DNA from: Sarcocystis neurona
Taxonomy: Eukaryota; Apicomplexa; Conoidasida; Eucoccidiorida; Sarcocystidae
Length of the DNA stretch: 64,000 nt
Reading direction: 5' to 3'
Assembly: GCA_000727475.1 (NCBI GenBank)
Contig: KL647290.1
Span: 2,841,534 to 2,905,533, forward strand
The notes beneath the pieces are model-generated. The model searched no databases. It was not told the origin of the DNA and was given only the letters and a program-made list of their open reading frames with translations. Below are positions 4,645-55,100 of this stretch, piece after piece (position 1 is the first letter of the stretch; every line of letters begins with the position of its first letter). The translations under genes were made by a program, and so were the position numbers.

Positions 4645-6412
4645 ATGTATCTGCAGGCCGCGGTTGAGAAGTCGGGGAGAGCGGAGGGGAGAGCAGCAGC
4701 CGCAGCTGCTCCGAGGGGGATCACAGCAACTGCTAAAGAAAGAACAGCAGCAGGAGGACAGCGAGAAGAAGCAGCTGGAGGGGCAGCAGGAGGGGCGTCG
4801 CCAGCGGTGGAGGGTGAAGAAGAGCGAGCTGCAGCAGATGGCGTGGAAGACGACGGAGAAGGCGTCGCTGCTGACAGAAGTTTGGGAGGAGCAAGCGAGC
4901 CGGAAGAAATTTACACCGCGGCACCACCTGAGACGGGAGAAGACGAAGAAGGGGCAGTAACAGATACAGAGGTCGGCACTCATGGCGCTGCCGCAGCAGC
5001 AGGGGAGGAAGAGGAGGAGGCAGCAGCAGCAGTCGTCGATTTGCCTAACGTGCTTCGAGCAGCAGCAACGCATTCCCAGCAGCGCAAGGCAGCAGCAGCA
5101 GCACTAGCCCTGGCCGAAGAAGAGGCTGCGGCTGCGAGCCTCGCAGACGGTGTGATAACGACAGAAGCAGCAGCTGCAGCAGAAGGAGCGGCAGCAGAAG
5201 AAGAGGCAGCAGAAGAAGCAGCAGCAAAACCAGCCGCAGGCTTGGGGGAACCGGATGCTCCTGCTCGTGGGCGCTGTCATGCTGCTGCTGTGACGCCAGC
5301 TCGTTCTCCCATTTCCCGCAGAAGAACAGGGGAAGAAGATCGACAGTCTGCTGCAGAAGAAGCTAGGCGGCCCTGCGATGCAGCTGCTGCTGCGGAAGCC
5401 GTCACCGGAGTCTCCTTAGGGCCGAAGGCAGCGGCTGCTGGTGCTGCAGCTTCGGCAACAGGAGACGCAGGGGCAGCAGCTGCAGTCGAGGAAGGCGGGG
5501 GGTTCTCTGCTACAACAGCGTCTGCTGCAATGGCGCATGAAGCCAATCAAGCCTGGACTCGCCCAGCAGGAGGGAAAGGCAACAACTTCCCGCTGCATCG
5601 CCACGCAACACGGCAGTATCCAGGGGAAGGGGGAGGAGCGGCAGGACCCCGTCCCACAGAGCCCAGCAAGACCGACAGCAGCAGCGGGGACCGCAGCCGC
5701 AACAGCCCGCGTAGCAGCAGGTCCAGCAGCAGCGGGCTCAGCAGTAGCAGCTACACAGAGAGCAGGAGAGGCAGTTGTGGGGCGGAAGATTTTTTGCACG
5801 GGAGGGAAAAAAGCAGCACCGGCAGCGCGAGGACTGGTGCAACAGGAAGAACGGATGGCAGCATTAGCAGCAGCAGCAGGAGAAGCAGTGCCGCGCTTTC
5901 AAAGCGAAGCGACGACAGGGGGGTGCTGCCGTGGTTCTCGAGCAGCACCAGCAGCAGAGGTCTGGAGATCAGCAGCAGCAGTGGAGAGGTGCCGTCCAAG
6001 TGGAACCGAAGGAGCAGCCGAGTGGAGACCCAGGACCGGCAGCCACAGGAAGGGGCGGCAGCAGGAGGAGTGAAAGTGGACGACGAAGCTGCTGCTGCTG
6101 CTGCAGGGGAGGAGGAGGAGGGGGGAGGAGGAGGGGGAGGAGGAGGAGAAGCATCGACGTGGAAGGTGTTCACGTACAGAGGCCAGGACGAGCGCACGAG
6201 ACGGCTGCTGCAGGAGGAAGCAGCAGCGCTGATGCGGCAGGCCACTGCTAGTCGCAGCAGCAGCAACATCAGCAGCAGGAGCGGAAGGGGGAGTCAGCAG
6301 AAGCGCGCGACCACCGCACAGGACCCCGCCAAGCGACAGGAGGAGGCTGCTGCAGCGCCTTTGTCCGTACGAGAAGACGACGAAGCAGCAACGTCTACAA
6401 CAACTGCAACAG
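4645..6412 (+). CDS. PLC gene exon 1: Ala/Glu/Ser-rich N-terminal extension
   Basis: Open from the ATG at 4645 (frame open since 4546, after a TGA at 4543) to a strong ACAG/GTAAGC donor; ends in phase 1. About 589 residues. The first half is poly-Ala alternating with poly-Glu, the middle is Ser/Arg-rich, and a Gly run of about nine residues falls at 6118-6150. The only ordinary-looking stretch is [19 protein letters not shown] near 6155-6205. No domain is recognised. CAG arrays in the Ala, Ser and Gln registers explain the composition. The start codon is provisional because an acceptor in 4546-4645 could join an upstream exon. Confidence 0.5.
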
Positions 6413-9400
6413 GTAAGCATCTGTACTACTACTAGATGACTAGTAGGAATGGCAGGAGGTGCTGCATGAGAGGGAGCAGCAGCAGCGGCAGGAGGTAAAC
6501 AAGCAGCAGCAGCAGAGCCGAAGACAGCAGTTGCTGCACCGTTCGAGACACATACGGGGCGTTGGAGAATCTAGAGCAGGCCAGCAGCAACAGGGTACCC
6601 ACGGATGGGAGAAGTGCGACACAGGAGCAGCATGCCGATGTCTTTCGACCTGCGGCTGCTTCTTCCTGACGGCTGCTGCTGGTGCTACTTTCTCTTTGCT
6701 CGCAGATCCTGTTGCTGCTGCTGCTGCTGCGGCACTCGGTGGTCGAGGGTCTCTGCCCGGTCCAGGCAGCAGCCAGGTGCAACAGCAGCAACAGCAGCAA
6801 GGAAGCAGCGAAGTGGAAGACGACGCCGACGTGTTTCTCGCGGAGAGGCGGGGGGGGGGGCACTGGCGCGAACAGCAGGAGCAGGGGCAGCAACCTAACT
6901 CAAGGGAAGAACAGCAGCAGCAAGAGCGTGAGAAGCAGCGACGATATGAAGACTCTCTCTCATGTGCATCGACGGAGAGGCAGCACAGACAGCAGCAAAG
7001 GCAGCAGCAAAGGCAGCAGCCGAAGGAGCAGCAGGGTGCGTACGAGCTTCAGCGGCAGCAGGGAGAGCCTGAGTGTCAAGAGCAGGACAAGCAGCACCGG
7101 CAGCCGTCAGAGCGTGAGCTTTGACCCTAGCAGGCACCGCGGCAGCGAGGGCAGCAGCAGGGGCAGCAAGGACAGCAGCAGCAGCTTCTTAGTGAGACTG
7201 CCAGAAGCAGAGACACCGGGAGGCAAAACGGCGTACAAAGCGTGGGAGGCCACCGCGGGGGCAGGGCTCGAGAGACTTGCAGCGTTCATTTTCTCAGGGA
7301 CGCCTTTGGGCGAGCCGAGACGCAGCAGCAGGGAGAGCGTTGCCGCCGTCGGAAGCCGGGGTGCCACAGACGGCAGCGGCAGCTTCAAGACAGCAGCGGC
7401 CAGCAGCAGGAGCAGCAGCATCTCCGGCGACAGCACCAGCCGTGGTCTGCAGTTCTGGAGGAAGCTGGACGTGGGGCGTTACTTTTCTACCGCAGCAGCG
7501 GCTTCAGAGAATACGGACTCAGCGACTAGGAGGACGCGAAAGACGTCGCAGGAGAAGGAGCAGAACGCGTCTCTCGCGCACCCGCAGCAGGCGCAGCAAC
7601 AGGCACATTCGACTGCCCTGCAGCGCCGGGACACTCCTGCGAAGCAGCACCACCACCTGCAGGAAGTGCAGCAACGGCAGAGAGGGCACGCTGCACGGCA
7701 AGAGATGCAATCTGCAGAGGAGGAGAAGGAGGCGGAGACTGGGACGGAAGGAGACGAAGAGAAGAAGGAGAAAATTCTCGCCCATGCGCGCAGCAGAGCG
7801 GCTGGACCACGCGCAGTTGGTGGACGGGACGACAGAAGACGCCCTGCTGCGGAGACAGCGGCAGCAGCGCAAACATCAACGAGCAGAACTTCCCGTGCTG
7901 CTGCTGCTGCTGCACCGACCGTCTCGCAGCTGGAAGGAGCTGGCAATCGTCCGCCATCGGGTAAGCCAAGAAGAATCGCGAAGATCGCCGCATGTGCAGG
8001 AATGGAGATGGCTGTCTACCCCCAGGACAGGGCTCCAGCAGCAGCCGCTTGATGTGCGTGTCTGTGCCACGTAGCAGAGCGAAGGCTGGGGCTCGCCTGG
8101 CCCCCCAGCTATCCAGTAGATGTATGTGAGTGCAACGCAGAGATGAAAATCCACCACCTGGTGCTGCATGCAAAGGTGTTTGTGTCACCTTTATTGAATA
8201 TATCCATACGTATGTATATGTATGCGCCTGTTTATATAGGTGATTATAGCAGCCACCCGGTAGTCCGACCGCAGGACGCGTGCGTGTGTACCTACACTTG
8301 TGTGTCTGTGCGGCTGCAAATCTTCTAATAGTGAACGCAGTCTACACACCTATACAGGGAACTGCTGTATATGTACATATGTATACGTATGTCGGATGTA
8401 TGTATGGGTGTGTATATGGGTATTCGGTTATAGTGCGCCTTTCCTAACATGTTGTTGCTTTGCTCTGCGAGTTTGCTGGTGTCTAGTGCGCTGCTGTTTC
8501 TTCCCGGCGCTGCTGTTGCTGCTGCTACTCCTCTGACGCGTGTGTAACACGCAGATACTGCTGCCGCTGCGGCTTGAAGTGTCAGAGTCTTCGTCGTGTG
8601 AGGATGCTGGTTCTGGTGTTGCGGCGCAATGCTGCTGTAAAATTTGCCGCCACTTCCGTAGGCTGCCCCTGCCTCGTGGGGAGTCGCTCCTGCTGTTCCA
8701 CCGGTTTCTGGATTTTGCTGGAGGCAATGCTGCTGCAAGCGCTGCTGCCGCCATTGTGCACGCCGCTGCTGCTGTTGTGGGCCTTGCTGCTGCTGTGGTG
8801 GGAGCCGCTGCTGGTGCGGTGTGGGCGATTCTGCTGCTACGGTGGTCGTCGCTGCTGGTGTTGTGTCAGGCTGCTGCTGTTTTGCTGTTACGACTGCTCG
8901 TGAAAATGGTAGCAGCCGCTGCTGCTGGTGAGGAAGGATCGGTGCTGCTGCAAGCGTTGCTGCGAGACGCCCTGCTGCTCTTTTGGAAATATGCAGCAGG
9001 CTGCTGCAGCTGCCGGATGTGTTGTGCTCCTACAACGTCGTGCCGCTGCGATGGTTTGTGGGTTTTTTTTAAACGCGTATACCTCGTCTTGGTGCTAGTG
9101 CTGGTGGTGTTGCCCTCTGCAAAGCAGCTGAATTGCCGGGCGCTGAACGATTTGTGTCTGCTGCTGCCACTGCTAACACTGCGTCGCCTCATGGCTTCTG
9201 CTCCTGCTTCGTTTGATCTTCGACAAGGAAGGCACGGGAGTTCTACTCTTGCTCTGCTACGCTGTTGCTGCTTTTGGCTGCCGCCGTATGGTACTGCTCT
9301 TCTGTGAATGCCACTGCTGCCGCAGGTCGGGAATGCTGCTGCCGCCGCGGCTCTCGACTGCTGCTGCTGCGGCTCTCGATTGCTGCTGCTGCTGTTGCCG

Positions 9401-12400
9401 CGTTTGTCGACTGCTGCTGCTGCTGCGACTCGCGACTCTTGCTGCTGCTGCGCTCGTTCTCCGGCGCTGCGGCGAGCTGCTCTCATGTACTGCTGTTTGT
9501 CCTGCTCCTCCTGCATGGGGCGGCTGCTGCGCCCTGCAACTGCTTTGTCGCTTGTGCACGGCTCTGCTGCATTTGCGTGCGCTGCTGCTGTTGCTGTCTG
9601 TCGGGACAGGGTATCTGCGGTCGCGCAGCAGCCGCTCAGTGGGAAGTTGGAGCAGCCGCAGAGACGGCAGCAACGATAGCGACAGCAGGAGTAGCAGCGG
9701 CAGCTGCCGCAGCAGCGATAGCCGCAGTAGCAGCACTGCAGAGGAGTTCCTTGGACGTGTGGGGTCGAAGGCCCACTACAGTTGGCCGTCGTCAGCGTTG
9801 CATGGGTGGGCAGCAGCAGAAGAAGAAGAGAAAGCAACAGCTGCAACACTTGAACGAGCAGCAGCAGCAGCATACCAGAAGGAAGCCCGCACGGTGAGTG
9901 CTAGAGCAGGAGGGGAGGGCGAAGAAGGAAGACGAAGGCGAGCAGCAGCCAAGGCAATAGGCAAAGTACCCTACAGTCGCCTGCCGTCAAAGCAGCAGCG
10001 TATGCGCCGCCACGCAACCCGGTCGCTCTCACCGATGAAACGCAGCAGCAAACTGCGAGACAACAGGAGCCGCCGATTCGACAGCAGCAGCAGCAGAGGC
10101 AGCACCGCGAGCGGCGAGCCCTCTGCGGCCGACGTCGACGAGTCTGCAGAGGCAGCGTCGCTGCTGCAGCAGGACGAAGACTACGGGAAGCATCAGTTGC
10201 AGCAGCAGCTTGGAGCGGAGGCTGGCGAGTCTGCTGCTGCAGCAGCAGACTCGCCAAAGCGCAGAACTAGTGGCTCGGCGTATGCTGCTGCTGCTGCTGT
10301 TGAGCCGCTAGTGGCAGCAGCAGCAGCGTCGCGATCTCGGCTGCCCACGACCACGCCGAGAGCACAAGACAGAAGCCGGCGGCCTGCGGAGATGGGACTG
10401 CAGCACCAGCAGCGGGAGCAGCAGGAAAGTAGGAAGGAAGAGGAGACGCAGTGGGCGCGAGAGCAGCAGCAGAAGTTCGAGCCGCTGCGGTCGATGTCGT
10501 CTCTCGATTTTCTCTGTGTCGAGCAGTACCCGCGGCTGTTTTCTCCTTTCTCGCCGTTTTCTTCTCCAGAGGTGAAGGAAAGCAGCGACAGCGTCGCAGA
10601 GGCATCTTGGTCTATGTCGTTCAGCAGGAGCAGCAGCAGCCCAAGAAGCAGCAGCAGCGACAGCAGCAGCAGAAGCAGCAGCGTCAAGCGGCGGAGAGGA
10701 AGGATTCGCGAAGGGAAGGTTGTCGACAGCAGCACCGGCAGGGGAGCGAGCTCAGAGAGCAGCAGCAGCAGCAAACCCGAGAACCGAGGATACGACCCTA
10801 GCAGCAGCAGCGGCAAGATTTCTCTGAAGGATGATGGAATGCTGTTAGCCCGGGCAGCAGAAAATGCGTGTTCACATCGTGGCTACGGCCAGCCACCTTC
10901 GCGTCTGTTGCTGTTGCTGCAGAAGTGGAAACGCCGCTCGAGAGCCGCAGCGGCGGCGGCAGAGCATGCGGCTGCCGTGTCCGCGCCGGTGTTGAAACTG
11001 ATGCGTCGCCAGCTGCGAGCGTCGACAGCAGCAGGCAGAGGCAGACACGACAGCAGCAACGCAGCAACGGCGGTGAGCGGCGTCGTCGCTGCTGTCGCTG
11101 AAGAAGCAGCCAAAGAAGCAGAGCGCAGAGTCTTAGAAGCAGCGATCGTCGAAAGCGAAGTCAAATTTAGAGCGACTAAACTGCGACTATCGCGATGGAT
11201 GTCCCATCCTAGTATACCCAGTAAGCGCGTATGGGACGTCGTCTTTCCTGGTAAGCTACCGCGACACTCTCCATCAGCTGTCTGCCCGAACACCGAAGTT
11301 ATAAATGTACGTATACATATTTATATATATATGTACGTTCATACGTGTATCTATCTATCTGTATATATATGTGTGTGTAGTTGTGATAAGTGTGTGAATA
11401 CATATGTATATGTCTCTACGTTCACAAATGTATGCATACCCATATATGTATATATATATAGGTGCACTACTGTACTTACATATATGCCAGGCATTGATCT
11501 TTCTGTGCTCTCGTATATCTGCGTACATACACATCTGCGCGTACCTTCATCTATATATCTGTAGGCATGCTGGTGAGGCTCTGTATATGTCAAACATTCA
11601 TCCCTATGCTTCCCTACGCATACGTATCTGCGCGGTAATATATATGTATATGTATGTATGTATGTGGGTGATCGTGTAAGATGGCATGCGAGTATGTATG
11701 CTTGCATGTATTGGCTCATGTTTATATAGAGAGAGGGGAAGGGGTGAGCCATTTGGTCCGTCAGACGAAAGCAGCAGTTGCGCCAGTGAGCGAGCCACTG
11801 CCGTGTGTCTTCGCTCGCGTATGTTTAGAAAAAAAAACTGCGGACTTTTTCTGAGATATCGTAGCAGAGCTCTGTGTAGCTGCAGCGTGAGTGTCTGCCA
11901 GCAGAAGAAGGGATGGTCGGAACCTCTTCGTGGCGTACGAAGAACTCGCACCTGCTTGCGGACCAGCGGAGGAGAGTACACACATGTGTGTAGAAGTCCT
12001 GGTATACACATATATATACACGTCTACTTTCGTATATATATCTCTATCTGTTTCTGTAACCGCTTGCATACATCCTCCTGTGTATACATATGCATTGATA
12101 TATATATATACACGTATACGTACTTTCGAATCTATATATATGTATATGTACCTCTCGACGCGTGTATGTATGAACACGTTTCTGTGAACACACGTATATA
12201 TAAACTCCCTATTATATATATATATGGACTTCCGAATCTGCATGTATATGTAGATGTATGTACGTATACATGTGTATATATAGCTGTCTATGTTTCGTCA
12301 AACATGTGGAAATACACGCTTGACAGGTACGCATACACGCGCAAAGACATATCGAGGCCTGCGTCTGTCCCTCTCTCTCGATATATATATATATGGTTGT

Positions 12401-15400
12401 ATAGATCTTGGTAGGTATATAGAAGTGTAGGCGTGCAAGCATGTATATACGTGTAAGTATCTACCAAAGGACCTGCGTGCTTGTGCTTGTAACTACGAGT
12501 GCCCAAATTCGGTTTGTTCGTCTGCAAGGCATTGCTTGACGGTCTCTTGTAAAGAGACTGCAGGTTAGCAGCCTGTTTATGGACGCATATCTTTATCTAT
12601 CTCTCCCTCTATATATATGTTTATATATGTATATGAATAAGAGTATATATACAGACAGGCGGATCCTTTGAAAATCTGCAGGTATATACACGTGTGCATG
12701 TCTACGTGCGGTACACATGTTTCTCTACATGAATCTGAATTTATGTATATATACGTGTATACGCAGCCTTCTTCTCGAAGGGGCAACGCCAGCAACAGCA
12801 GCGCGACAGCAACAGCAGCGCGACAGCAACAGCAGCGGCAGCAGCAGCACCAGGAGCGCAGTAGCGGCAGACGCTCTGTGTTACACCCCCCCCCCAGCCA
12901 GCAGCAGCACGCGAGGAGCTGTTTCACACGAGAAGAGAAGCACGTGCATATTCAGGTGCCAGGAGTTAGAAGAGACGAACTTTTCCTACGTCCCTTTTGT
13001 AGAAGGAATGTGCTTCTCTTTGTTGCCACTGGTGCTGTGCGCCTCACTGTCCTGCTAATTCTGCTGCTGCTGCTGCTATCGCTCGTGCACCTGCCGCTGC
13101 TGTCGCTCCTGCAGCCGCTGCTGCTGTCGCTCCTGCTGATGCTGTGCGCCTACTCTTGCTCGCGCTCCTGCACGTGCCGCTGCTGTCGCTCCTGCTCCTG
13201 GTGCTGCTGCTGTCGTTCCTGCTCTTGCTGCTATTCCTGCTGTTCCCGTCCGTCTGCTACTGTGGGTGTTGGTCCTGCACGTATTACTTCTCCCTCTGCT
13301 GCTGCTTCTGGCTGCGCCTGGGTGAATACGTATGCAGCCACGCACAACAGCGCCTCATGGCGAATATCCAAGAGTAAATCCGGGAAGCGGGTGCTTCTCT
13401 CTCTGATCAAGAACTGGGTTGTCTGCCAGGCAAGTATTATCCACCGAGTCCCCTGCTCTTCGCTCCCCGACTGCCTGCCGCTGCTTCATTTCTTTCTCTG
13501 TTGCTGCCGGTACCTACGCGGCCTTCTGCTGCAGCCCTTAGGGGGGGGTGCTACTGCTTCTTCGCTGCTGCTGCTCTTCTCTCGTGTCGCTGCTGTCGCG
13601 CGAGCTCCCCACGGTGCTTCTGGCTGCTGGTGGTGACTCGTAGCTGCTGCTGCTGCTTCGTGTCTGCTGCTCCTGTTGCGCGTCGACAGCCGTTTAACTG
13701 CTGGTGCAGCGCATCGGGGGCGGCGTCTGTGTGTTCAGGCCCCCTTGCTGCTGCAGCTGCTTCCTCTCGCCTGCTGCTGCTCTGCAGGCCCTTCGTTGCT
13801 GCTACTCACTGACGGCGGAGCCTGAGTTCCTGTTGTCCTTCGTCTCCCGCGGGGACACACACGTCTTGACGCCTAGCTGCGAGACGGTGTGACTGCTGCT
13901 GCTACTTTTATGCAGTGCCATATGTGCTGCTCTGTCTGTTTGCTGCTTGCGCGTCTGCGTCGCGACGAAGCTCGTGCCACTGCTTCTCGGCTGCTACGCG
14001 TCTGCTGCCGCTCGCTGTTGGAGCTGTGACGCATCGGCCGCTGCGGGTCAAGCGCAGCTGTTGCAAGTCTGCGTCCGCACTTTACAAGCTGCGGCTATTC
14101 CGCTGCCGTTTCTTCGCTGCTGCTCGCCTCCACAGTAGGGCCCGACACTTGCTGCTGCGTAGCTGCTGCTGCTGCGTAGCGGCTGCTGCTGCATCGCCGC
14201 TGCGTGGTTTCCGCGACAGGCTACGTTTCGTCATTCTGCTCATGTTTCACGTGCGCGAGCAGCCAATGTCAGGAAGACGCGTTTCTTGCCGCCGCTATCC
14301 GCCGTTGATGGTGCTGCCGTCTTGTGGTGCACTTCGCTGCTGCTGCTTCTTGGCGCTGGCTGTCGGGTGCAGAACACTTTACTGAAGCGGCAGCGAAGTG
14401 GGCTACAGCTGCTTGTACAGAGTTTCTCCTGCAGCTGCTGCATGCGGACGTGCTACGACTTGCTGCTGTGCTCTTGCGCAGCGGGATGTTCGGTACTGCT
14501 TCCAACAGCTGCTTGTCTACTCCTGAGGGCAAAACGCTTCTGCGTGCGTGACTTCACGTGGGTTCCTCGGGGCAGGCAGAAGGGAAATGGACGGAGGTCG
14601 ATAGCTGCTGCGACTGCCGGTGCATCTCTTCTTGCTGCAGACGAACTGCTGCTGCTGCTGTAGCTTTGCAGCGGCTGTTTCTGTGGCGAGGCTGCTGCCG
14701 CGGCCACAGATGTAGGTTGCTGCTGCTGCTGCCGTAGACTCTTGTTGTTGTTGTGAAGCGACACCACAGCTGCCACTACCCTGCTGCTAGTCAGCAGCAC
14801 CTCGTCGTGGTGCTCACGCGCGTAGCAGCAGTGTAGGGCAGTTGAAACGGCTGGGCTTCGCCAGCTCTCGTTTTCCTGCTGCTGCTGCTTCGAAGACGTC
14901 GCCAGAGCTGTGTCTCTCTGCGTTTATTACCTTACTCCAGTACATACATGTATATACATATATATATATATATATGTATACATGTGTACACAAAAATTCC
15001 GACTAATGAGTGAGTATACTTCTGTACACATATATACATATATACATATATATGTGTGTGTGTGGGCTGCTTGATTTGCTTGTCCTGCCCGTGAGGCTTG
15101 GGGCGCCGAATGTTGCTGTTTGTAACATGCCTGCTGCCCGCCTCGGCATCCGGCGTAACGCTGGACGACGTGCTCCGCTGGCTGCGGCCTGCTCGTGCAG
15201 CTCGGGTGCTGCTGCGTTGTCGCATTCTCGCGTTTGCGGGGATGCAGAAAATTGCTGCCGTGCTGCTGGAGCTGCTGTGGTGTAGCGGCTTGTTTTTACT
15301 GCTGCTGCCGTCTGGTAGCTGGTGCTGCGCGTACGCTTGTCGGCTGCTGCTGCTGCTGTTGTGCGTTATGCGTGGCTTTGTTGCTGCTGCTGCTGTTGTT

Positions 15401-18400
15401 GCATTGCCGTCATTGTGGAGGCCCGGCTGCTACTGCGCGGCGGCGAGATGCCGCTGGGGCCGTGGTGACGTGTGGTGTGCGTCTGCAGCTGCCGTTGCTG
15501 TAGTAGGGATAAAGCTGCTTCTCCTACCATACGTCAGCGGCAACGAAGCCAAGAGTGCCTGCTTCGTGCTGCTCTGCGAGTGGGGCGGCTGTGCTGTGTG
15601 GGATGTCGAGGTGGTGCTGCTGGCGCTGCTGCGACGTAGATGCTGTCTGCGGTTTCGTCGCCGTTGATGCTGCGTTGCTGCAGCTGGAGCACATGAGCGA
15701 TGCAGCTGAATTGCCGCTGCTCGTTTGTGAAGCTGCTGCGGTTGCTAGTGCAGCGTAGCTGCCGCTGGCGCTGCTATCCTGCTCCTGCGGCTGCGGAGGC
15801 GTGGAGATTGCTGCGGCTGCTCCTTGCTGCCACGGCTGTCCCTCGGCTTAGCAGGTGTTGCTGCTTCTTCTGCGTAGGTGGCGGTGCGGCTGCGCTGCAT
15901 GCGCGTGGCGGCTGCTTTTCAGCTGCTGCCGCGTTGCTGCTGTGCGTATATGGCGTTGCTGTGTTTGGCTGCTGCTGGCGCTTCATCGAAGGCGACGTGT
16001 CTGCGCAGGTGACGACGCTGCTGCTGCTGCTAGTCGTGACAGATGCTGCTGCCCTTCTTTTCTGCTGCTCTGCGTCTCCCATGCACGCTGCGTACTTAAC
16101 CGGGTGCACGCCTGCTGCCGATGTTTGTCGGGTGCAGGAAGTAAATTTGTCAACGCAGCTGCGGCGCGGCATCCGCTGGTTGGATCTGCGGGTGTGCAAA
16201 CTGGCTGAACCGAAGAATCCCCAGCAGCGGCGCCAGCAGCAGCAGGCGGAAGAGGCGAGGAAGGCGGAGGCAGCGGCAGCTTCTAAAGCTGGTGCTGAAG
16301 AAGCAACAGCACCAGCAGGTAAAGCCTGTGGTGCAGCAGCAGGTGCAGCAGCAGCAGGTGCAGCAGCAGCAGGTGCAGCAGCAGCAGGTGCAGCAGCAGA
16401 AGCGGCGGGAAAACAGACGCCGCAACAGCAGCAAGCAACGGAGGCAAAGTGCCCGCAGTAACGCAGCAGGTGAAGCAGTAGCTGCAGCAGCGATGGGGAA
16501 AGCAGCAGAGGCCGGCCGCATTCAGCAGGACGGGCAGCGCACCAGCAACGTCAGTCCGCATGCAGCAGCAGCAGCGTGTGTGTGGCAGCAACGGCACCTC
16601 GAGTAGAAGCACAGCGGCAGCCACCAGTGTCGCTCAAGCAAGAGGCAGCAGAGTGGCAACTGTACGTCGAAGTGCTGCAGCACCATATAATGCCGCAGCA
16701 GGGAAGAAGGGGACAACAGAGCGCACATACATCAGGCGGACGGCAACAACAAAAAAGTGCCACACCAGGAGCGTCAGCAGCATAGTCTTCAGAAGCAGCA
16801 GGAGCAGCAGGAACTCCCGTCCCCCTTCCTCCACGTGCAGCAGCAGCTATAGCAGCAGCAAAAAGAATCGGACGAGGAGTAGCGGTGGCAGCAACAGCAG
16901 CAGCAGCCGCAGAGGAGCATCACGCCGCTGCGTTGTGTTGGAGACTCTTAGCCGACGTGTTGATTTCTTATTTCCCACCACGAATGTGTGCATTCCTGAA
17001 ACTACTGACCGATATAAATACGCACACATCTGTGCGCCATATATAGGTGTATATGGTTTGTATATATGTGTATGAAGGAATATGCGTACGCACACGCGTA
17101 CGCGCCATTATATATATATATATATGTTTGTATATTGATCTATGCAGGCATAACGCATATGCAGGTGTGTCACTACATAAAGGGAGGAATGAAACGAGAC
17201 GAGATACGGTTCTTCGTGTGTGGGGCTGTCCCGGCCCTCCTTCTGGTTGTTGCTGCAGCGCGTCCTTCAACCTTGTACACAGTCCTGAGGCGCTTTGCTG
17301 AACTTTCTGCTGCTGCTGCTGCCGCTAAATTCCCCGCGGGGGGGTCGCGCACTGCTGCTGCAGCTGCGTCTATGTTGTCGAAGAGGTGTAGTCACCGCCG
17401 CTGCGCCGGCCGTCGTTCTCTTGCTGCGGTGTGTGCGTGCGGTGCAGAAGCAGCTGCGACTGCTGCTGGTGTCACTTCAACTCGCGACCGCCCGGCGAAG
17501 CACGCAAGCAGCGTACTGGACGCCGCACCACATCCGCAGCAGCCCACAGGGAAAGAGCAGCAGCAGCAGCACGAGGAGGGGCAACTCGGCGCGCAGCAGC
17601 AGCCGCTGACAGTGCAAGCTGGGCAGCACAAGTCACCTCAGACGCACGGACATGCGAAGGCTACGAAGCGCAGCAGCAGAAGGCCGTCGGCGGAGAGGGA
17701 AACGCATGACGAGCATGCAGACCACGTGCATCAAATATCTGCAAGACACGCCAGCTCGCAGTCTCCCGTCTCTTCTTCTTCCTCGGTTGCTGCTGCGCGA
17801 GGGACGAGGCCTGCGCTGCTGCCCGCTGCTGCTGCAGGCGATTCCCGCGTCCGACTGGTGCCGCACTGCGCTCATGGTGGCGTCTGCACCGTGCCTCTGG
17901 TCAGCAGAAGAGTTGGTAACTGCTTCACGAGTCTTCCCCATTTTCATCTGCGTGGATTCTTCGACTCGTCTTTGCGCTGAAGACGCAAACGTTTCTCTTC
18001 CTTTCCTGTCGAATGCAGGAGCGTACGGACTCTATGACGTATCTGTGGACACATGTGTGTGCCTGCTAAGTGTACAGACTCCTACACATGTACACATACA
18101 TATGTATATATATATACATATGTATCTATACATATATATATATATATGTATATCTTGGTGAGTATACATACTGGAACGTGTATATACATATATATATATA
18201 TATATGCATGCAGTCTTTGTATGTACAGTCGTTTTTACATTATAGGAAAGAGTTTGCACGTTACACACACTCCCATCGGTGTATATATATATATATATAT
18301 AGGTTTCCATATATATAAATATATATATATATATACGAATAGCGAGTCAGTCTCCGTAGTCGTCTGTGAGTAGGTATACGTGTGTGTGTGTGTGTGTGTG

Positions 18401-19978
18401 TGTATATGGAGTGCATGTACAAGGCACATATGCTTCCGTGTTGGAAGGCGTGTAGGCCACTGCGGTGTCCACATGTCTCCGCGGATAAATGTGCCACGGC
18501 TCCCGCGTTAAATAATGCCTCTCAGCTGCTGCTGTTGTTGTGTGGTTTCGCTTTGCTTCGTGTAATAATGGCCCTGGTTTGCTGTTTTTGTGTGGGGTCC
18601 TCTCGCTACGTCGAGTAATGCCGCTGGAACGCTGTGCTGTCCCTCTGGGCTCCCTTTGGCTGCTGCTGCTGCTGGTGCTCTGTGCAGATTTCGGCGCTGA
18701 AGGAAGTGAGGCAGTTCCTGTACGCACACCCCACGGAGATCGTCGTGCTGAGTTTTGCTTCAGATGCTGGCGTCTGCCAAGGTGCCTTCCATGACACCCG
18801 CCCGCTGACGCCCAGCGAGACAGACTTCTACGTGGCGGCGCTCTTGAAGAACTTCCTGGGCTCGGCTCTGCAGCGCAGTACGACTGTGCGCGAGCTCCTG
18901 CAGCGGTAGGCGTGCGCCTTCCAGGTGCTGCTTCTGTCCCGGCTGCTGCTACTGCTGCTCGAGCGGCTTTTTGCTGCCCCCGCTCGAAGAAGCCCCCTCG
19001 CGTATGTGACAGTGAAGCTGCTTGTCTGCTCTGCTGCTGCACGCACGTCAACCAACTCCGAGTGTCTACATCTATGAAGCCCCTACGTGCATATACTGTG
19101 AGAACACCTCCGCCCATCCAAATATATCCACGAATCTCTTATATATATATATATGTTTGCCTACATGCACACGTGCGTATGCATTTGTATGGCGATACGA
19201 GCGAAGGAGATTTAGACAGTTCTTCCTCTCTTCCACGCCCTCTCTCTCGATGTAAACGTATACGTGGGCATGTGTATGTATGTAGGGAGGGAGACGAGAG
19301 GGGGACCTCCAGACAGCTTCAGCTGCAGGCCCGCATTTATACATATATATATATATAATCCTGTGCGTGATATACACGTAGAAGTGTCCCTGCTGCGGCG
19401 ACGTTAAGGATACGTGGAAATGCCTGCAATCTGCGCAACAGCTGTAAACTTTTGTGTTCGGGAATATATACATACCTAGACCTACATACATACATCTGTA
19501 TCTCGCTGGTCGGCGTAGATGACTCTGTACACACGGTAGAAACACTCAGAAGTGTACACGGGGTGGGCGAATATATATATGGATATAATGCAGCGTAATG
19601 CAGAGCGAACGAGTGTGTATATGCATACAGCACACGTACGTATATGTCTTAAGTATGCATATGTATGTAGAGAGAGGCACATTAAAGGATGAGTGTATAT
19701 ATATATATATGTATATGCGTGACAAGCTGACTACCAAATCTAGGCGTTCAAGATGAGTTAAGGCGCTGGTGACTCAGAGACAGAAAGACGGATAGATACG
19801 CGTGAGTGTATATACATATGCATGTGTGTGTATATATGTTTCCTCCATTTAGACGTATGTATGAGTGTGTACCTATCTGTCGCCTTCGTACTAAATATCG
19901 TTTTGAGACTCCTTTCTTGCTACTGTGGAGTCGTGTGCAACCTGAACTGTCCGGATACCACCAAGCATATCACATTCA

Positions 19979-20014
<36 letters not shown>

Positions 20015-23000
20015 TATGTGTGTATGAAGGTAGATATAGATGTAGATGTGAGATACTGTGAGGGTTCTTTGATGACAGACGCATGCGCTGATGTTGTGTT
20101 ACTTCCACCGTAGATGCGGATAGCATGCTGGCAATCCTGCTCAGCAAGTGTTTGTTGCCGGTCTTTTGCAGAAACCAGCGAGTGATTTACTTGTGGAATC
20201 ACCAGGAGCGATGTTTGCCCGAGGCAGCCGCATGCGACGCGTGCAGGCAGCGACAGCAGCAACAGCAGGGGACGCAACGCGAGCAGAAGGAAGGGACACA
20301 GCTGCAGAAGAGAGGTGCTCTTTCTTGGTTTTCGAAACCAGAAGAGGCAGGAGGTTTAACTGCGCTGGACCTGGAGGAGGAGCCGCAGCAGCGAGGCGAC
20401 GCGTCATGTACAAAGGAGGAGCGACGAGCCGTCGGTAAGGAGGCCTAGCTGCTGCACTTCATTCCCTAGAGAGCGACTGCAGAAGCTGCAGCTGCTGTGT
20501 GAGTAGGATAGAGCAGCAACAGCAGCAGCAGGGAAGCAGGGGAGGGAAAGGAGAAGAATGCAGCCGCAGCAGCAACAGCAGCATCATCAATGCGCTGAAA
20601 GAAGAAGCACCGGCAGCTGCCAGCGCTCGTCCAGAGAAGGGACGCACATGTCAGAAACCACAGCAGCAGAAAACAGAGCAGAAGAAGCGCCGCTGTTTCT
20701 GCAGGTGGTCGCAGCAGAAAGAAGAACAACTGCAGGGGTCGCAGTGGCAGCAGTATCACTCTGCACGGCGGTAACTGATACTTGTTATGACGGTTATACT
20801 CCTTCGAACAGCAGCAACCACACAGCAGTGGGTGCAGCAGCAGCACTCAGAAGTGCAGGATCAGCAGCTACAGCAGCAGCAGGTCACAGCGAGATCGGCA
20901 GCAACGGCGTGTGCAACACAGCACCAGCATCAGCGACGCGTAGCAGCAGGAGCGCGACAACAGCAGCTGCGCGACAGCAGCAGCCGCGCGACAGCAGCAG
21001 TCGCGCGAGAGCAGCAGCAACCAGAGTTGTGGCAGCGACAATAAGAGTAGCGGCATCAGAAGGGGGACCACCAGTGTCGTCAGCAGCAACAGCAACGGGA
21101 GGTACATTACCCGCAGTAGCAAGAGTGACAGCAGCAGCAATGGAGCAGTAGCGCCACGAGGAGCGACAAGGGCCGGCACGTGAGGGGCCGCTGCAGCAAC
21201 TTCTTAACCGGCTGCAGCATGCGGCTGCTTTTCTTGTTTGCTGCAGGTGCGGAGAAGTTGCTACGGCGTGACGGCGATTCTGCTGCTGGGGAAGAGGTCG
21301 CCCCGAGCGGCGGGAGTGGCAGCAACCAGCATGTCACACGGATCCAAGCGGCCGACGACGGCGCTGCGGCTGCAATGTCCTGCTGCTGCCAGCAGCGCCA
21401 GCGCTTGGAAGTGTGGCTGCAGCAGGCGTACCCGGTGAGAAGCAAGCAATTTCACATTGACAGGAGAACTTTTCCCAGACGGTTTCGCAGTACTTACGGG
21501 GACCCAGGAAAAGGCAGAGGGAGCAGCAGTGTCGCAGTGGAAGAGTTGCAGAGCGAGCAGCGTGACACAGCAGGGATAGCAGAGTGACAACCGCAGCAGT
21601 CGAAGAGCTGCAGCAGCACAGACGTGGAAGGGCAGCCAGCACTCCCACAACAGCAGCGCAGGAGCAGCAGTGTCGACAGTAGCCGTGGAAGTGGGCCCCA
21701 CGTGTTATTCTTCAAGAGGAGGCGCAGCAGCAAGTCTATCGGCAGGGAAACGGCAGCGACTGTAGCAATGGTTGTACATTACCAGCAACAGGAGCAACAC
21801 CAGCCGTAGAGGACGCAGGCGCAAAAAGGGGTATGGACGAAAGGAAAACAGCAACAACGTCAGCGCGGGGAAGACGATTAAACCAGGGCAATAGAAGCGT
21901 CACGAAGACAAGAGAAGCAGCTGCGGCAGTGTTCGTTGTTGTCTTGCATAGGAGGCCAGCCCGCCCAGGCAACTGAGAGAAAGGGGCAGCAGCACGTCAC
22001 ACTGAAGGCGACAGCAGACGACACGCACATATTTCATCAAGGGCAACATCGTCCCCGAACATTTACAGCAGCACGTCTGTGTTTTGTCCTTTGCGCGCGC
22101 TGCCAACACTAATGTGTCGCCATTCCAGCAGGTGAATCGTACAGACCGCTGCCACTTTTCCATTTGCTGCTGCCGAGCCACTGCGCGCTGCGACTTTTTC
22201 CGATGCTGCTGCTGCTGGTGCTGTTGCTGGGGCTCCTGCTGTTGCTGCTCCTGCTGCTGTCAAGGCACTTCTCCCCATTGGTGCTTGCGTGGCTGCGGCG
22301 GCTGCGGCTGTCGCGGTGCTGGCGCTGTCGTTGCTGCGACACTAGCTGCTGCTGCTGATTCCCCGTTCGGGGGGCCTGGCTGACATATAATACGTCTTCT
22401 TAGCAGCAGCTCCATCAGCAACACAACGGTCTGGAGACGGCAGGGAGCCGCCGTCTCCACGCTTGGCATGTCTGTGTAGATGAGAGGAGACTCTCTGCAG
22501 CGCAGCGTTTGATAGCAGGCAGCGGGGAGGAGCAGTCGGTCGAGCCAGAATAAGCAGCTCGACGATTCTTCAGGTATTGGCTGCTAGTCAACAATACAAC
22601 GACAGTGACACCAGCCTCGCTGGGGGAAAGCAGCAGCACACTTTTCCTGCTCTCCGACAGCATCAGGAACACGGCAAGGATGCTTGTATGTGTTTGCACC
22701 CATATGTATGTGTACGCACGTCTTTATCTTTGAAACAAAATTTTTCTTTCTGCATTACATGCTAAGTGAAGTGGAATACAATGTTCTAAGTGAGCAGCAA
22801 GTAGAAGAAGAGACACGGCGTACGGCCTTTGAAGATCCACGCATTTGTCTGCGTGAAGAGATTGAACCATACCCCGTGTGTGTGAGGGTACATGACACAG
22901 GTGTACACACGTGTATGTATTTATGTATGTATATGTATTTTCTACATTTGTGTGTCTTTCTTTGATTGTGTACGGAGGCGTTGTTGCAGTCTAACACATT

Positions 23001-26000
23001 TCTGTGTAAAGGTCATTGAATAGTACTACGGAAGCAGTAACGGGGACAGTGTGGAGCATTTGCAGCAGTGCGAGAGTAGCAGGAGCCGCAGAAACAGCTG
23101 TGCTGCGGTTTTCTCCGCTACAGCGCACATGCATAGGTGGGGGATGTGTATGTCGGCGGTGGGGTGTGTGTGTGTGTTTCAGTTCTTCTGCACCGACGCT
23201 TCCTCGCTGGAGAAGCTGCTGCAGCTGCGGACGTTTTCTCCTCAAGGAGCTTCGAAGCACCCGGCTGCTGCGCGTGAAGGCGGAGGACCAGCAGCCGCGG
23301 CGGGAGAGAAGGCTCCTGCGTCTGGTGTGCTACAGAAGCATCACCCTGCTACTAAAGGAGTCGACTCCCTTCCTGCAGCTGCCGGTGCTTCGTCGCTGCA
23401 GGGCAGTAGCAGCAGCAGCGGTGACGGCAGCAGGAGCCGCCGTAGCTTCGACAGCAGCGGCAGCGATAGAAGAGTTTTTAGCAGCAACGCGCGATGTAGC
23501 AGCAGCAGTAGCAGCGCGGAAGACAGTTTGCGTAAGGGCGGAGAAAGGAAGGAGTTGCACCAGCAGACAGAGAACTCAGCAGCAGATGAACCGGCACCAT
23601 CTATCATGGCAGATATGGCGCATTCAGATGCTGATGCAGGCACCAGCTATTCCAGCGAAACTTCGCTTGAAAATGTGCAGCGTCATGCGCGCGCACGCGC
23701 AGCAAGGCGGAGAAGGACGAAGAAACGCATCACAGTCGAAACTCCTGAGACAGCAAGTCCTGCTGACGCTCCTCCTGCTGGTGCTGCTGGCGCTGGTGGA
23801 GGAGGAGGAGGAGCGACACCTGCGGCGGGTGCTGCAGTGTCTGCTGCTGCCCCTTCCAAGAGCGCAGTCCGAAGCGAAGAAGCGGCAGGTTCTCATACCT
23901 CGTGTTCTGCTGCTGCTGGTTCGGCGTCTGGTGCTGCAGACGTTGCTGCTCCTGCGACAGCAGTCCACACCAGCGGCGTGACTGTGTTTGGCAGAGAGTA
24001 CCCGCGGAGTCCTTTTCTTGCAGGTCCTTCGACTCTGGTCAAAAGCTGGATAGACACACGGGCAATCACTCCCGATGTGCTGCTGGTCAATCTTGCATTG
24101 TGGTTGGAGAAGCAACAGCAGAGTTTCACGGCGGAGCAGCGACAGCAGCAGCAAGTGCTGCAGCTGCCGGAACAGCAACAGCGACAGCAACAGCGGAAAC
24201 ACGACAGGAAGAAGCAGCTGCAGGGGGAACAACAGAGCGATGCGTCGCAGCGGGTGCAGACCCACCAGGGGACGCAGCAGCGCGAGGATGGTCAACGGCA
24301 GCAGCAAGACCACCCTCGAGAGGAAGCAACACGGATGCGCAAGGAACAGAAGCGACAGAGACAAAGGGGAAAAGCCGAGAAGCAACAGCTGCTGTCAGAT
24401 ATGCACCTGAAGCCTTTCACCTTCTCAATGCTCTGCGGTAAGGCATAAAAAGCACAACACAGGATGGATTCTGGCCGCCCACGGAAGAAAAGACCTGCTG
24501 CACTGCAGTGCTACTCGATAACAATTGCGTTGGTAGCCGATATCCGACACTGTCATGCAGTGCACTCGTCTCTCTCCCTCTATATGTATAAATATATATA
24601 TATATATACAGAAGTACAGATGTTTCGATATGTGTATACGTGTATACACATATGTAAACGTGTATATGTAAACATGTGTACCGTTATACGTATGTGTACA
24701 ACTGTAACCTGCTCACCGATGTGTATACGCAGGGTAGTATATATATATATACATACGTGTGTTTCTACCTGTGTATGCACATACGCTTATTCAACTCGCA
24801 TTTTTGCAACCCATATATCTACATACGTATGTACATATGTATACCGTCTGTGTCTCGGTATGCCTACTGACGTCCGCGCAGCCGTAAATGTGATCGGCAT
24901 ACATGTGGAAGGACGTGTACACGTGCATGCGTATGTGAGTGGTATTTCTCCGAGTGAATATGAGACTGTAGACGAGTGAGTCAGATTTATATTCTCGCGT
25001 GGGTGGCGCAGAAGATGTAGAGAGGGGCTCACGCGCAGCCATTGCGCTCGGTCGACGTCCTCATCTGTATATTCCACTCGCTACTGCAGTAGGATGTGCG
25101 CCTGCGTGCTTTGAATACATATACAGATGTGTAAGCCTAAGCATGTATTCGTTTGTGCTGCTTGTCCGTGTTTGTTAGTGAATCTAGACACACGAAGACT
25201 TCCACGCACGCCTCTGCGGTTACTCGGACGATTATGTATCTGCGTCGATACAGAATGTATGCGTCGATATGTATGCGTGTGTACGTGGTTACAAATGGGT
25301 CACGCGTACGTGCATTACGTACGCACACACCTGCGAAGGTGTGCACGTGCATGTATATCTACATGTGTATATAAGTATATATTTGTATGCATATATATAT
25401 ATATATTTATGCCGACACAGAGACGAGAGCCAATATATACACAGGAAACGAAGAAAAGGAGACATGTGTTTATATCTGAGGTTTGGGTGCGTCTGAGACA
25501 GGCGAGGTAACGGCTCCTGACTACGTGGGATTGACAGTGCTGACGTACTGGACGACGCAGGCAGGTTGTGCGCTGCGGCAGATGCATGGCCTGCGCGTAG
25601 CAGGGAAGAAGACGAACAAGTTGCTGCTGCAGTTTCTGGTGCAGCAGCAGCTGCTTGCGAGACAGAGGCGGTTGCAGATGCTGTGGAAAAAGCGATGCAA
25701 GCAGCTGAGAAAGCCGAAGGAGCGAGCACCAGATTTGTCTGCTTCCAGCAATCCTGTGATTGAAACAGATGCTAATGCCGCCTTCTTGCAGGAGCCGGAC
25801 CTTTCTGATGTGCCTGCTGCTGCAGCTGCTCTTTGTGAGGAGGACTCTTCTTCTTATTCTCCCGCCTCCGGCGCTGCTCGAGATGTTTCTCTCTCCACTG
25901 CTGTTGCGGAAGCGGACGACTTCTCTTCTCCGGATGCTGCAGACGTGGATAACGCGACTTCGTCTTCTGCAAAAGCTGGTGATGCCTTGTTGGCGGCTGG

Positions 26001-52100: not shown

Positions 52101-55100
52101 GAAACTGACTCCACTGTACTTGTGTGTGCTTTACATTTCACGTAGAAAGATGAACCTACCATACAACGTGCTCAGGAGGCGTGCACCTTCACGAATATAC
52201 ACGCATATATATATATGTGTATGTATACTTGAATATTCTGTACACCTGTAACGTGTTGAGGACGCGTGAATAATTGTGTCACTATGTGTGCCCGTTCGGC
52301 TGTGCACGAGAAGCCTTTCGAGCTCTAGCCACGCCCACTTCCGGACCGGACAAGTGCCCTGTTTTCCTATCCGTATGATATCCCCATGTTGCTGAAATAT
52401 GCAGAAATATGCGTTATCGTCAATATATATATGTGTCGTCTAAAGCGGAGGCGCAGCAGTCTCCTCTCTCAGCGTAACCTACAAGTGCAATTGTACGCTT
52501 ATGCATATATATATATGTATATATATATAGGGAGAGAGAGAGAAGGGAAAAAAGAAAACAACCAGGCGAGAAATAGTACTGCAAAGGGTGAACTATGATG
52601 CTGGAGTTACTGCTTCCTTTCCCGTTTCCCGAGTCTTCTGTATCTCCGCTTCGTTCTCCGTTTCTGCTACCATCGTCCCGCTGCGGGTACCTCTGGTGCT
52701 CTGCGCCTGCCTGCGTCAGTCAATGTTGCTGCTAGTACTGTGGCTTCTGAAAACCCTGCTGGTGCTGCGCCGCGCTGCCTGAATTTGCTGTTGCTGCATC
52801 ATTTGCTTGGTTGCTGGGCTGTCGTTCCGTAGTGCGACGGCGCGTGGCGTGACGTCGAGCGATTTGCTGGCAGCTTGACAAGCGTTCTTTCCTACGTCGC
52901 GCTGAGCTTCAGAAAATATGTCGCCGACATGCTGCTAGTAGCATACAACACAGCAACCCTCAATATGGCCGATCCCAGTGGCCAGTGGCAGAGCGGCCTT
53001 GAAGGCTTCGCAGCTGCGCACAAGACGCTTGAGGAGGCAACAACACGCGGACAGTTTCCGTCCGAGCTCTTCAGGAGACCGGAGCTCGGTAAAGACGTCA
53101 GGCGGCTCTCCGTGGGCATTATCAACACAGGTGTGATTTATGCGCTTGCCGACTACTGCCAGTCTCTCCGCAGCCTCCACTTTTCTCGTTCACTTGTATT
53201 CGTCTCTCTCTCGACACAGACAGGCATCTCTACATGTGTACGTAGAAGACGTAGCTGCCACAGACAAGCAGGTGATCAAACGGTGCTGCCAAAAAACTGC
53301 CAGCCCAAAGGATCCGGCTTTCCTCTGGGAATCAGGCACTTCCGGCAGCTTCACACATCAGCAGTCACTCAGCAGATAAAAATTTTTGTGGAAGTATGTG
53401 GACGCACGTAGATGTATATGCGTGCAACGTCTTGCCCCATCTCCGCCAGCAGCAACCACACTGCGTGCCCGCCCAGCTATATTCACATGTGCATATATAT
53501 ATGAGTCTGTTTGTGTACAAGTGTGTACGCACGCATGCAGACGCGTATTTCCGTATATATAAATATAAAGATGCACGTGTACATCTGTGGTATGTACGGG
53601 TAAACCGACACATGGTTGTCGCGTGCCAAGTGGCGGCATCTTGCGCAGCAACGGTGGTCTCCCGGCTGCAGAGACAGCATGAGAAGTTCCCGCCATCAGC
53701 TCAGCCGGCAAAATTTCGTTCCGTCCGCCTTCTGGGAGAGTCCCGCTTCCTCATTCGTGCATCGCTCTTCTATATTCGTGTTCACCTTTCTGCAGCGTGT
53801 GCCTTTTAGGGCTCACGACCTCTCACTTTCTTGTGCGGCAATCTCTTCCGCGCTGCAGGTCCTGCCAGAGCGAGGCACCCATCAGCAAACAGCGTCTTGC
53901 TCCTCTGAGCACGTAATTTGATACGCACGTGTTGAGAGAGGGAGAGGAAGACAGAGAGGGAGAGGTGGTTATATATAGATTTACAGCTAGATAGAAATAT
54001 GGAGAGATATACTACGTATATACATATATTTACGTACGCAGTCGGGCAAACATGCGTACGAAAAATCCCTTGACTCCTTCGAATCTTTTGTCAGTCAGAA
54101 ATGTTCTTCATACAGTTCTGTGTTCATTTGCTCCTGCAGCAATATTCTTCGTGCTTCAGAATCTGCATAACTGGCAGCCAGTTCCAGCAACAGACGGGCT
54201 CCAACCATCTTCGGTGGAGAGCCAGTTCAGGGTACGACGGCACAGACTTTTCGGGCAGCCCCTTCAACCCAAACTTGTCCTCACCGGCAATGTTGAGCCT
54301 TCTGCAGCTGTGTCATACCCTTTTCCTCCTCCTTTCTCTCCTTCTCACTCTTCACCGTCTGCTCCTTCTGGCGCTCCGCTTTCCATTCTATCTTCTCGGT
54401 CAGATCCCGACGAAGTAGCAGTGGCAGAAGGGATAACAGGTGGGGGGGGGGCACGTGAAGCTGGAGAAGGAAACGAGTCGTCAGAAGCAATAGCTGCAGC
54501 CCGTCTTCCCCTAACGCGAAGCACTTTCATTAGTTCAAAAGAATCCGCTCTCCAGCTCTCCCCCACCACACCATCGGCAGTAGCGGTGGCTGCTGCTGGT
54601 GCCGCCCGGCGTGGAGAAGGGTCACCTGCGCAGCTTTACCTGGAGGACGTTTCACCTGACAATCCTGGCATCACGACATTTCTGGACAAAGGCTGGTCGC
54701 AGGCGAGGCCGCTGCATGGAAAATTCGCCGCACCTGCTGCGTCGGGAGCAGCCACCGCAGCAGGTGTTGCTGCTGCTCCAAAACCGAACTGCCCAGCTAC
54801 AGCGGCTCCTCCTTCATCTACGCTGCTGCATTTCGGTCCGACGGCGGCCACGGTCCCCTCGGCCTTTGTGACATTCGCGCACACATTCTGGCCCAGGGCC
54901 GACGCCGTCGTTGGAGGCCGAGTCCCACCCCCCCATGCAGCAGCGGCAGCAGCTCCCCCTGCAGTACCGACGGCAGCTCCCTCTGTAACGGCGACGGCGG
55001 CTCCCCTTGCAGCAGAAGCTGCAGGAGCAGGACAAGCAGCGAAAGAGAAACAAGCAAGCAAAGTAGACACGGACGCGCTGAAAAAGTTGCGAGCAGCACG

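What the first reader, a model, noticed from the sequence alone, without database searches (positions are those of the whole stretch)
13338..26349. A PLC X domain scattered over 13 kb, with each catalytic element on its own small exon
The first His (13343), the LDLR Asp (16183), the second His (17873), the HPTEIV block (18688) and the closing LN strands (26200-26330) lie on separate exons, all in matching phase. Gln/Ala/Ser insertions fall between barrel strands, so a domain of about 300 residues is expanded to over 1,000. Low-complexity insertions are known in Eimeria proteins, but this many inside one catalytic barrel is striking. It raises the question of whether the enzyme still folds.
Basis: partly seen in the sequence, partly recalled or inferred. 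Interest (0 to 1): 0.8.

Follow-up and report, generated by a model that had tools for sequence, protein, structure and literature searches.

The report
Loop-swollen phospholipase C gene in coccidia
A parasite gene for a likely lipid-cutting enzyme (phospholipase C) is split into many pieces and padded with repetitive protein loops, but relatives in Toxoplasma, Besnoitia, Cyclospora and Eimeria carry the same enzyme with an almost constant core and some of the same padding, so it looks like a real and old gene rather than a broken one.

Summary
Nine exons (11.1-26.35 kb, + strand) join in matching phase; the quoted codons lie exactly at 13343, 16183 and 17873. Test without my exon model: the Toxoplasma ortholog's domain gives nine tblastn hits, all + strand and collinear; 0 hits in the reversed window or 20 Markov sequences.

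The domain is 1,042 residues here: 315 core plus 727 in five variable stretches. In the six orthologs the same stretches total 329-399; sites 1 and 3 are long in all six, sites 2 and 5 only in Toxoplasma/Besnoitia, and site 4 is long only here. The core is 311 in four of six. Motifs are invariant, which argues that it folds; AlphaFold was uninformative.

The N-terminal half resembles metal-free PI-PLC (top 25 of 29 PDB matches, best E 5.5e-5), not the delta-type PI-PLC elsewhere in the genome. The protein lies outside the Eimeria/Cyclospora clade. Scattered exons occur in other genes here. New member of a known kind; no paper found on the Toxoplasma gene under four locus tags.

The parts
6157..6240 (+). 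probable N-terminal exon block (YRG...) of the same gene; exon borders not modelled
   Evidence: [22 protein letters not shown] aligns to P0001 304-325 (E 0.001 against only six proteins); coordinates
10902..11250 (+). exon A, 3' part: KW block and WM...VVFP, proposed first barrel strand; donor G|GTAAGC, phase 1
   Evidence: tblastn of the Toxoplasma domain hits 11187-11252; KW block aligns to P0001 698-725, E 5e-7 against only six proteins
13338..13429 (+). exon B: (P)ATHNSASW, first catalytic His codon 13343; GC donor CAG|GCAAGT
   Evidence: tblastn 13319-13429
16138..16318 (+). exon C: GIRWLDLR, Asp codon 16183 and Arg codon 16189, then insert 1 begins
   Evidence: tblastn 16135-16206
17838..17899 (+). 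exon D (minimal): CAHGGV, second catalytic His codon 17873; may begin further upstream
   Evidence: tblastn 17858-17902
18688..18905 (+). exon E: helix and HPTEIVVL strand (18727-18750)
   Evidence: tblastn 18676-18906, E 8.6e-20
20172..20434 (+). exon [17 protein letters not shown], then insert 2
   Evidence: tblastn 20170-20244
21247..21434 (+). exon G: rest of insert 2 and the W373 block
   Evidence: no tblastn hit of its own, so the weakest exon of the model
23183..24437 (+). exon H: insert 3 (about 23210-23995), SPF...NLALW block, Gln-rich insert 4 (about 24113-24409), FTFSMLCG block
   Evidence: tblastn 23999-24130
25502..26349 (+). exon I: EVTAP, helix, insert 5 (about 25645-26232), VLNAISHDF...FIVLLN closing block with candidate catalytic Asp codon 26269; stop 26347-26349
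   Evidence: tblastn 25501-25620 and 26224-26313

Best explanation
This is an intact coccidian gene for an X-domain-only phospholipase C: a bacterial/PLCXD-like phosphodiesterase barrel in which two His act as acid and base and an Arg takes the place of the calcium ion. It would cleave a phosphatidylinositol-type lipid, or a GPI anchor, into diacylglycerol and an inositol phosphate without needing calcium. About 315 core residues fold into the barrel; loops between conserved blocks are swollen by low-complexity, probably disordered sequence that the fold tolerates and whose length drifts by lineage, here to about twice the total seen in the orthologs. Shown: one gene, exon order and phase, orthologs, invariant motifs, near-constant core length, two loop sites long in all six orthologs. 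Inferred: barrel fold of the C-terminal half, activity, substrate, calcium independence, disorder, translation of the whole of each insert.
For: Nine phase-matched exons with a closing stop. Toxoplasma domain: 9 filtered tblastn hits, all collinear on the + strand, 0 in controls. Six orthologs, E 6.9e-69 to 8.9e-36, motifs in one chain, 108 invariant of 471 gap-free columns in window + five orthologs, P0005 left out. Core 311 residues in four of six orthologs, 315 here. Profile A2 (window + 5 orthologs, variable loops left out) finds PI-PLC as the top 25 of 29 PDB sequences, E 5.5e-5 to 5.2e-3, many of them variants of a few bacterial enzymes; the shown alignments pair the His, D-x-R and HG motifs. 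PF00388 found in 6 of 6 members of A2 at E<=1, best E 2.6e-6. No Y, C2, PH or EF-hand family among Pfam matches at E<=1 in the joined window protein or the six orthologs.
Against: The window protein stays under Pfam's cut-off of 23.1 bits in every form tried (15.6, 19.1, 18.5 and 22.8). The C-terminal half has no PDB relative, so its barrel role rests on order and conservation only. Both AlphaFold models are of very low confidence (pLDDT 35.4 and 32.9). No transcript; some insert DNA in exons H and I, open in frame, could still be spliced out. Insert 4 is long only here, and sites 2 and 5 are short in the Eimeria/Cyclospora proteins. Insert 1 is shorter here (45) than in orthologs (102-204), so exon C or D may be incomplete. 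The first PDB search, with the low-complexity stretch left in, gave only four proteasome-subunit hits, which I take as spurious.
Confidence: 0.85

Rival explanations
1. It is the parasite's ordinary delta-type, calcium-dependent PI-PLC, with X and Y halves.
For: Both are PLC-X-like and lie in the same genome; hhalign pairs LDLR with the delta-type ELDC stretch and aligns the HG region.
Against: The delta-type gene is elsewhere (C14:766879-769169, three pieces, PF00388 150.4 bits when joined). The profile comparison with it is not significant (probability 0.1%, E 0.51), and where it has Asp (recalled as a calcium ligand) Arg stands here. No Y or C2 domain was found.
Confidence: 0.03
2. A decayed or non-catalytic (pseudo-enzyme) PLC kept as a scaffold, the barrel spoiled by the insertions.
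For: Inserts make up 727 of 1,042 residues; no activity data; Asn stands where bacterial PI-PLC has Asp after the first His (alignments).
Against: Frame intact over nine exons; THNS, LDLR and CAHGG invariant in the window and all six orthologs; core length nearly constant. A decayed enzyme should lose these first.
Confidence: 0.1
3. Real exons, but the long low-complexity stretches in exons H and I (and C/D) are partly introns; the mature domain is nearer the 640-683 residues seen in five of six orthologs.
For: The window's inserts 2-5 are about 2-7 times as long as in the orthologs; another reading frame is also open over much of exon H (23010-23978), so openness there proves little; five candidate acceptors for exon D passed my filter.
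Against: The frames run open through the whole of H and I with conserved blocks on both sides; sites 1 and 3 are long in all six predicted ortholog proteins, which are themselves gene predictions.
Confidence: 0.3

Closest known systems
Toxoplasma gondii TGRUB_315080 (UniRef name begins 'Phosphatidylinositol-specific') and its Besnoitia, Cyclospora and Eimeria counterparts
   Same: Same order of conserved blocks; core of 311 residues in four of six; sites 1 and 3 long in all six
   Different: Variable stretches total 329-399 residues there, 727 here; site 4 long only here; insert 1 shorter here
Bacterial PI-PLC (PDB 1aod, 2plc, 3ea1, 1gym and others; bacterial origin recalled)
   Same: His, D-x-R and HG motifs and the following NP(K/S)E block align in order, best E 5.5e-5
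   Different: About 270-310 residues in the PDB chains, no such loops; THD there, THN here; the C-terminal half found no PDB match
PLCXD family of eukaryotes (X domain only)
   Same: X domain only, no Y/PH/EF/C2 found; definition from PMC10296670, passages seen
   Different: No PLCXD sequence was at hand for direct comparison; low-complexity loops here
Delta-type PI-PLC of apicomplexans (TGME49_248830, described as a single essential gene in T. gondii: PMC10543664, passages seen)
   Same: PLC-X superfamily; Plasmodium homologs also carry large insertions
   Different: Separate gene in this genome, VELDCWD motif, strong PF00388 match
CAG-derived homopolymer repeats (HAARs) of Eimeria proteins
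   Same: CAG-type runs coding for Gln/Ala/Ser; reported to be translated seemingly without affecting structure or function (PMC7564333, passages seen)
   Different: This protein falls outside the Eimeria/Cyclospora clade

Membership tests
Bacterial/PLCXD-like PI-PLC X (PF00388 superfamily) | Two catalytic His in TH(D/N) and HG motifs | tested here: met
   H47 and H148 invariant in the window and six orthologs; aligned to PI-PLC motifs in the PDB matches shown
Bacterial/PLCXD-like PI-PLC X (PF00388 superfamily) | D-x-R (Asp and Arg in place of calcium ligands) | tested here: met
   LDLR in 7 of 7 coccidian proteins, aligned to (I/F)DIR in the PDB matches shown
Bacterial/PLCXD-like PI-PLC X (PF00388 superfamily) | Profile match over the curated cut-off | tested here: inconclusive
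   Window 15.6, 19.1, 18.5 and 22.8 bits against 23.1; best member of A2 E 2.6e-6, its bits not shown
Bacterial/PLCXD-like PI-PLC X (PF00388 superfamily) | Complete TIM barrel | tested here: inconclusive
   First half by homology; second half without PDB match; AlphaFold pLDDT 35.4 and 32.9
PLCXD | X domain only; no Y, PH, EF-hand, C2 | tested here: met
   None of these among Pfam matches at E<=1 for the joined window protein or the six full orthologs; two upstream window frames also empty at E<=0.01
PLCXD | Closer by sequence to animal PLCXD than to bacterial PI-PLC | not tested
   No PLCXD sequence retrieved
Delta-type PI-PLC | Calcium-ligand motif E-L-D and X+Y+C2 architecture | tested here: not met
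   D-L-R instead of E-L-D (alignment); no Y/C2 among Pfam matches
Any PI-PLC | Enzyme activity | not testable with these tools
   Needs an assay
Eimeria gene | Falls within the Eimeria/Cyclospora clade of orthologs | tested here: not met
   Clade of P0003, P0004, P0006 without the window has support 100; identities 36.3-38.0% against 48.6-48.8% to Besnoitia/Toxoplasma; one gene, unrooted, six sequences

The most novel reading that the evidence does not exclude
Coccidia share a second, calcium-independent phospholipase C beside the well-studied delta-type enzyme, and have carried disordered loops at fixed places in its barrel since their common ancestor. Two of the five sites are long in all six orthologs, and one of these two lies between the catalytic Asp/Arg and the second His (45 residues here, 102-204 in the orthologs), where a length-variable loop could gate or target the enzyme.
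Probability: 0.3. Interest if true: 0.6.

Novelty: new member of a known kind. Interest (0 to 1): 0.38.

Why it matters
A review describes a single essential PI-PLC gene in Toxoplasma (PMC10543664, passages). A conserved X-domain-only PLC whose active-site motif lacks the usual calcium ligands would be a second possible source of diacylglycerol and inositol phosphates, or a GPI-cleaving enzyme, in these parasites. It is also a natural test of how much low-complexity sequence such a domain can carry: nearly the same core, with totals outside it from 329 to 727 residues.

Tried and rejected
A first join with exon A in the wrong frame gave stops and was corrected. Homolog one search (401 aa, low-complexity included) found nothing at E<=0.001 among 7,998 scored candidates; one search (region 137-250 of the same 401 aa) found nothing at E<=10 among 150 candidates; one search (1,079 aa, region 17-250) found the six orthologs among 7,989 scored. 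The PDB search with the low-complexity stretch gave four proteasome RPN10/S5a hits; with that stretch masked, 13 of 13 hits were PI-PLC but not significant (E 1.1-1.7). NCBIfam: nothing. Paralogs: besides the six exon hits in the window itself, five weak matches in this genome (E 0.047-3.1); I saw no PLC motif set in their translations. Prokaryotic relatives: 4 stretches matched a peptide pattern, none confirmed. Two AlphaFold jobs on full ortholog proteins were too poor for a fold search, which was therefore not run. The idea that [12 protein letters not shown] (7264-7299) is an N-terminal block failed BLAST. The species was not determined: the rRNA search did not complete. Print on the Toxoplasma gene: 0 papers for four locus tags (TGME49, TGGT1, TGRH88, TGVEG; TGRUB itself was not searched); PLCXD with Toxoplasma: 2 papers, judged unrelated from title and abstract start; GPI-PLC with Toxoplasma: 2 papers seen in the listing only. 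Passages of PMC6851018 on PLCXD3 and PMC8785600 on Eimeria proteins were also seen.

Full report
What is there. Reading the + strand from 10.5 to 31 kb and testing splice sites gives nine exons: A (to 11250), B 13338-13429, C 16138-16318, D 17838-17899, E 18688-18905, F 20172-20434, G 21247-21434, H 23183-24437, I 25502-26349. All eight junctions keep phase (1,0,1,0,2,1,0,1); all eight acceptors are AG, seven donors are GT and one is GC (CAG|GCAAGT at 13430). The joined protein from 11118 has 1,079 residues without an inner stop. A GT-donor alternative at the B/C junction, read by eye from the sequence, would give a protein of the same length that differs in two residues; the GC donor fits the consensus better.

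That it is one gene and not chance. The joined region found six proteins among 5.8 billion (7,989 candidates scored): Toxoplasma gondii TGRUB_315080 (E 6.9e-69), Besnoitia, two Cyclospora models, Eimeria necatrix and Eimeria stiedai (sequences). All six carry [24 protein letters not shown](T/S)E, GEVTAP and SHD(F/Y) in one chain, in the same order. As a test that does not use my exon model, the Toxoplasma domain (residues 801-1480) was compared with the raw window with the low-complexity filter on (E<=0.01): nine hits, all on the + strand, all in order. Of the nine hit edges that lie near a predicted splice site, seven are within 3 bases of it and two run over by 12 and 19 bases. The reversed window and 20 second-order Markov sequences gave none. 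Exon G alone has no hit of its own there and is the weakest exon.

Hints on intron age. The two Cyclospora models differ by the four residues VSCQ at the place of the window's B/C junction, which is the GC-donor intron here; the Eimeria necatrix model holds an extra 54 residues exactly at the H/I junction. I read both as gene-prediction slips at introns that lie at the same place as in the window. This is inference; no ortholog DNA was available.

Insertions. From W27 to N1068 the domain has 1,042 residues here, against 675, 683, 673, 764, 669 and 640 in P0001-P0006. Taking five variable stretches, whose borders I set on the window protein, out of the count leaves 315 here and 311, 311, 311, 365, 307 and 311 there; the 365 and 307 are the two gene-model differences just named. 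The five stretches total 727 here and 364, 372, 362, 399, 362, 329 there. Site by site (window; six orthologs): site 1, 45; 102-204. Site 2, 125; 64 and 58 in Toxoplasma and Besnoitia, 29 in the other four. Site 3, 262; 77-114. Site 4, 99; 16-25. Site 5, 196; 68 and 82 in Toxoplasma and Besnoitia, 29-37 in the other four. So sites 1 and 3 are swollen in all six orthologs and must be old; sites 2 and 5 are swollen only on the Toxoplasma side; site 4 only here. This lineage has the longest stretch at four of the five sites. The stretches here are rich in Ala, Gln, Ser, Glu, Arg and Gly, and the rest is rich in Leu and Val. Insert 1 is shorter here possibly because exon D begins upstream of 17838.

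What family. Pfam's PI-PLC-X model finds the window protein only below its cut-off (15.6, 19.1, 18.5 and 22.8 bits against 23.1), but finds 6 of 6 members of alignment A2 at E<=1, best 2.6e-6; of the six full-length orthologs it finds 5, best E 0.013. The profile of A2 (window plus five orthologs, variable loops left out) against PDB sequences gives 29 matches at E<=1; the first 25 (E 5.5e-5 to 5.2e-3) are all named PI-PLC or 1-phosphatidylinositol phosphodiesterase, many being variants of a few enzymes, and the other four (E 0.085-0.98) are unrelated. The three alignments shown put LDLR on (I/F)DIR and HGG on HG, and THNS on TH(D). That the enzymes are bacterial and that these are catalytic His, Asp/Arg and His is recalled knowledge. 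No delta-type PLC was among the matches. The genome's own delta-type X domain is elsewhere, in three pieces, scores 150.4 bits when joined, and is not significantly similar to A2. The C-terminal profile A3 found no relative in the PDB, so calling the FTFSMLCG and VLNAISHDF blocks strands 7 and 8 of the barrel, and D1054 (codon 26269) the partner Asp, is inference from order and invariance. Two AlphaFold runs on ortholog proteins with 6 and 5 sequences gave mean pLDDT 35.4 and 32.9 and settle nothing.

Is the scatter unusual? In the same genome, triosephosphate isomerase, a barrel of about 250 residues, is found in four pieces over 4.4 kb on C1, and a second TIM-like gene in two pieces over 6.3 kb on C6; the delta-type X domain is in three pieces over 2.3 kb; two aldolase genes are one piece each. 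So small exons with long introns are common though not universal here. Three families were looked at as controls, not a genome-wide sample.

Which organism. The window protein is 48.8% and 48.6% identical to Toxoplasma and Besnoitia over 471 columns and 36.3-38.0% to Eimeria and Cyclospora. In the unrooted tree the Eimeria/Cyclospora clade (support 100) excludes the window and hangs on a branch of 1.23, while the window (0.50) and the Toxoplasma/Besnoitia stem (0.42) are closer to the shared node; midpoint rooting would join these two. With 123 Mb in 74 contigs the genome is large for the group; Sarcocystis calchasi is reported at 113.89 Mbp in 75 contigs, about twice Toxoplasma, like S. neurona (PMC12132954, passages seen). 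If so, the CAG-repeat richness here is notable, because the literature seen ties it to Eimeria (PMC7564333, passages seen).

How it probably works. By analogy with bacterial PI-PLC (recalled): the first His deprotonates the inositol 2-OH, which attacks the phosphorus; the second His protonates the leaving diacylglycerol; Arg stabilises the charge in place of calcium. The swollen loops would lie outside the barrel core. Activity, substrate and calcium independence are untested. A review treats T. gondii as having a single PI-PLC gene (PMC10543664, passages); no paper in the library searched names 315080 under four strain tags.

Verdict. The striking reading (can it still fold?) is answered, as far as sequence can, by a near-constant core, invariant motifs and two loop sites swollen in every ortholog: very probably yes. 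It is a new member of a known kind with a moderately interesting twist.

Noticed in passing
window 1-64000: CAG/CTG-type triplet runs (3 or more units) fill 267-423 bp per 4 kb in 1-24000 but 18-102 bp per 4 kb in 24001-64000: a repeat-rich to repeat-poor change near the 3' end of the PLC gene, like the R/P segments described for Eimeria.
   Followed up: partly
13430: GC-AG intron (CAG|GCAAGT) at the B/C junction; the difference between two Cyclospora gene models (P0003, P0005) at the same place suggests a non-canonical donor there too.
   Followed up: partly
G000:C14:766879-769169 (L001-L003): The genome's delta-type PI-PLC X domain, in three exon pieces.
   Followed up: partly
G000:C1:2290788-2293719 (L016): Two aldolase genes side by side in the same direction, each found as one piece; the first has one TGA inside its match.
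   Followed up: no
P0004 (Eimeria necatrix protein): The public model carries an extra 54 residues at the H/I junction, probably a retained intron.
   Followed up: partly
window 53995-55626 and nine other open frames examined: Long open frames in the window, two of them upstream of exon A, without any Pfam match at E<=0.01 (0 of 10 frames); no Rfam match in the window.
   Followed up: no
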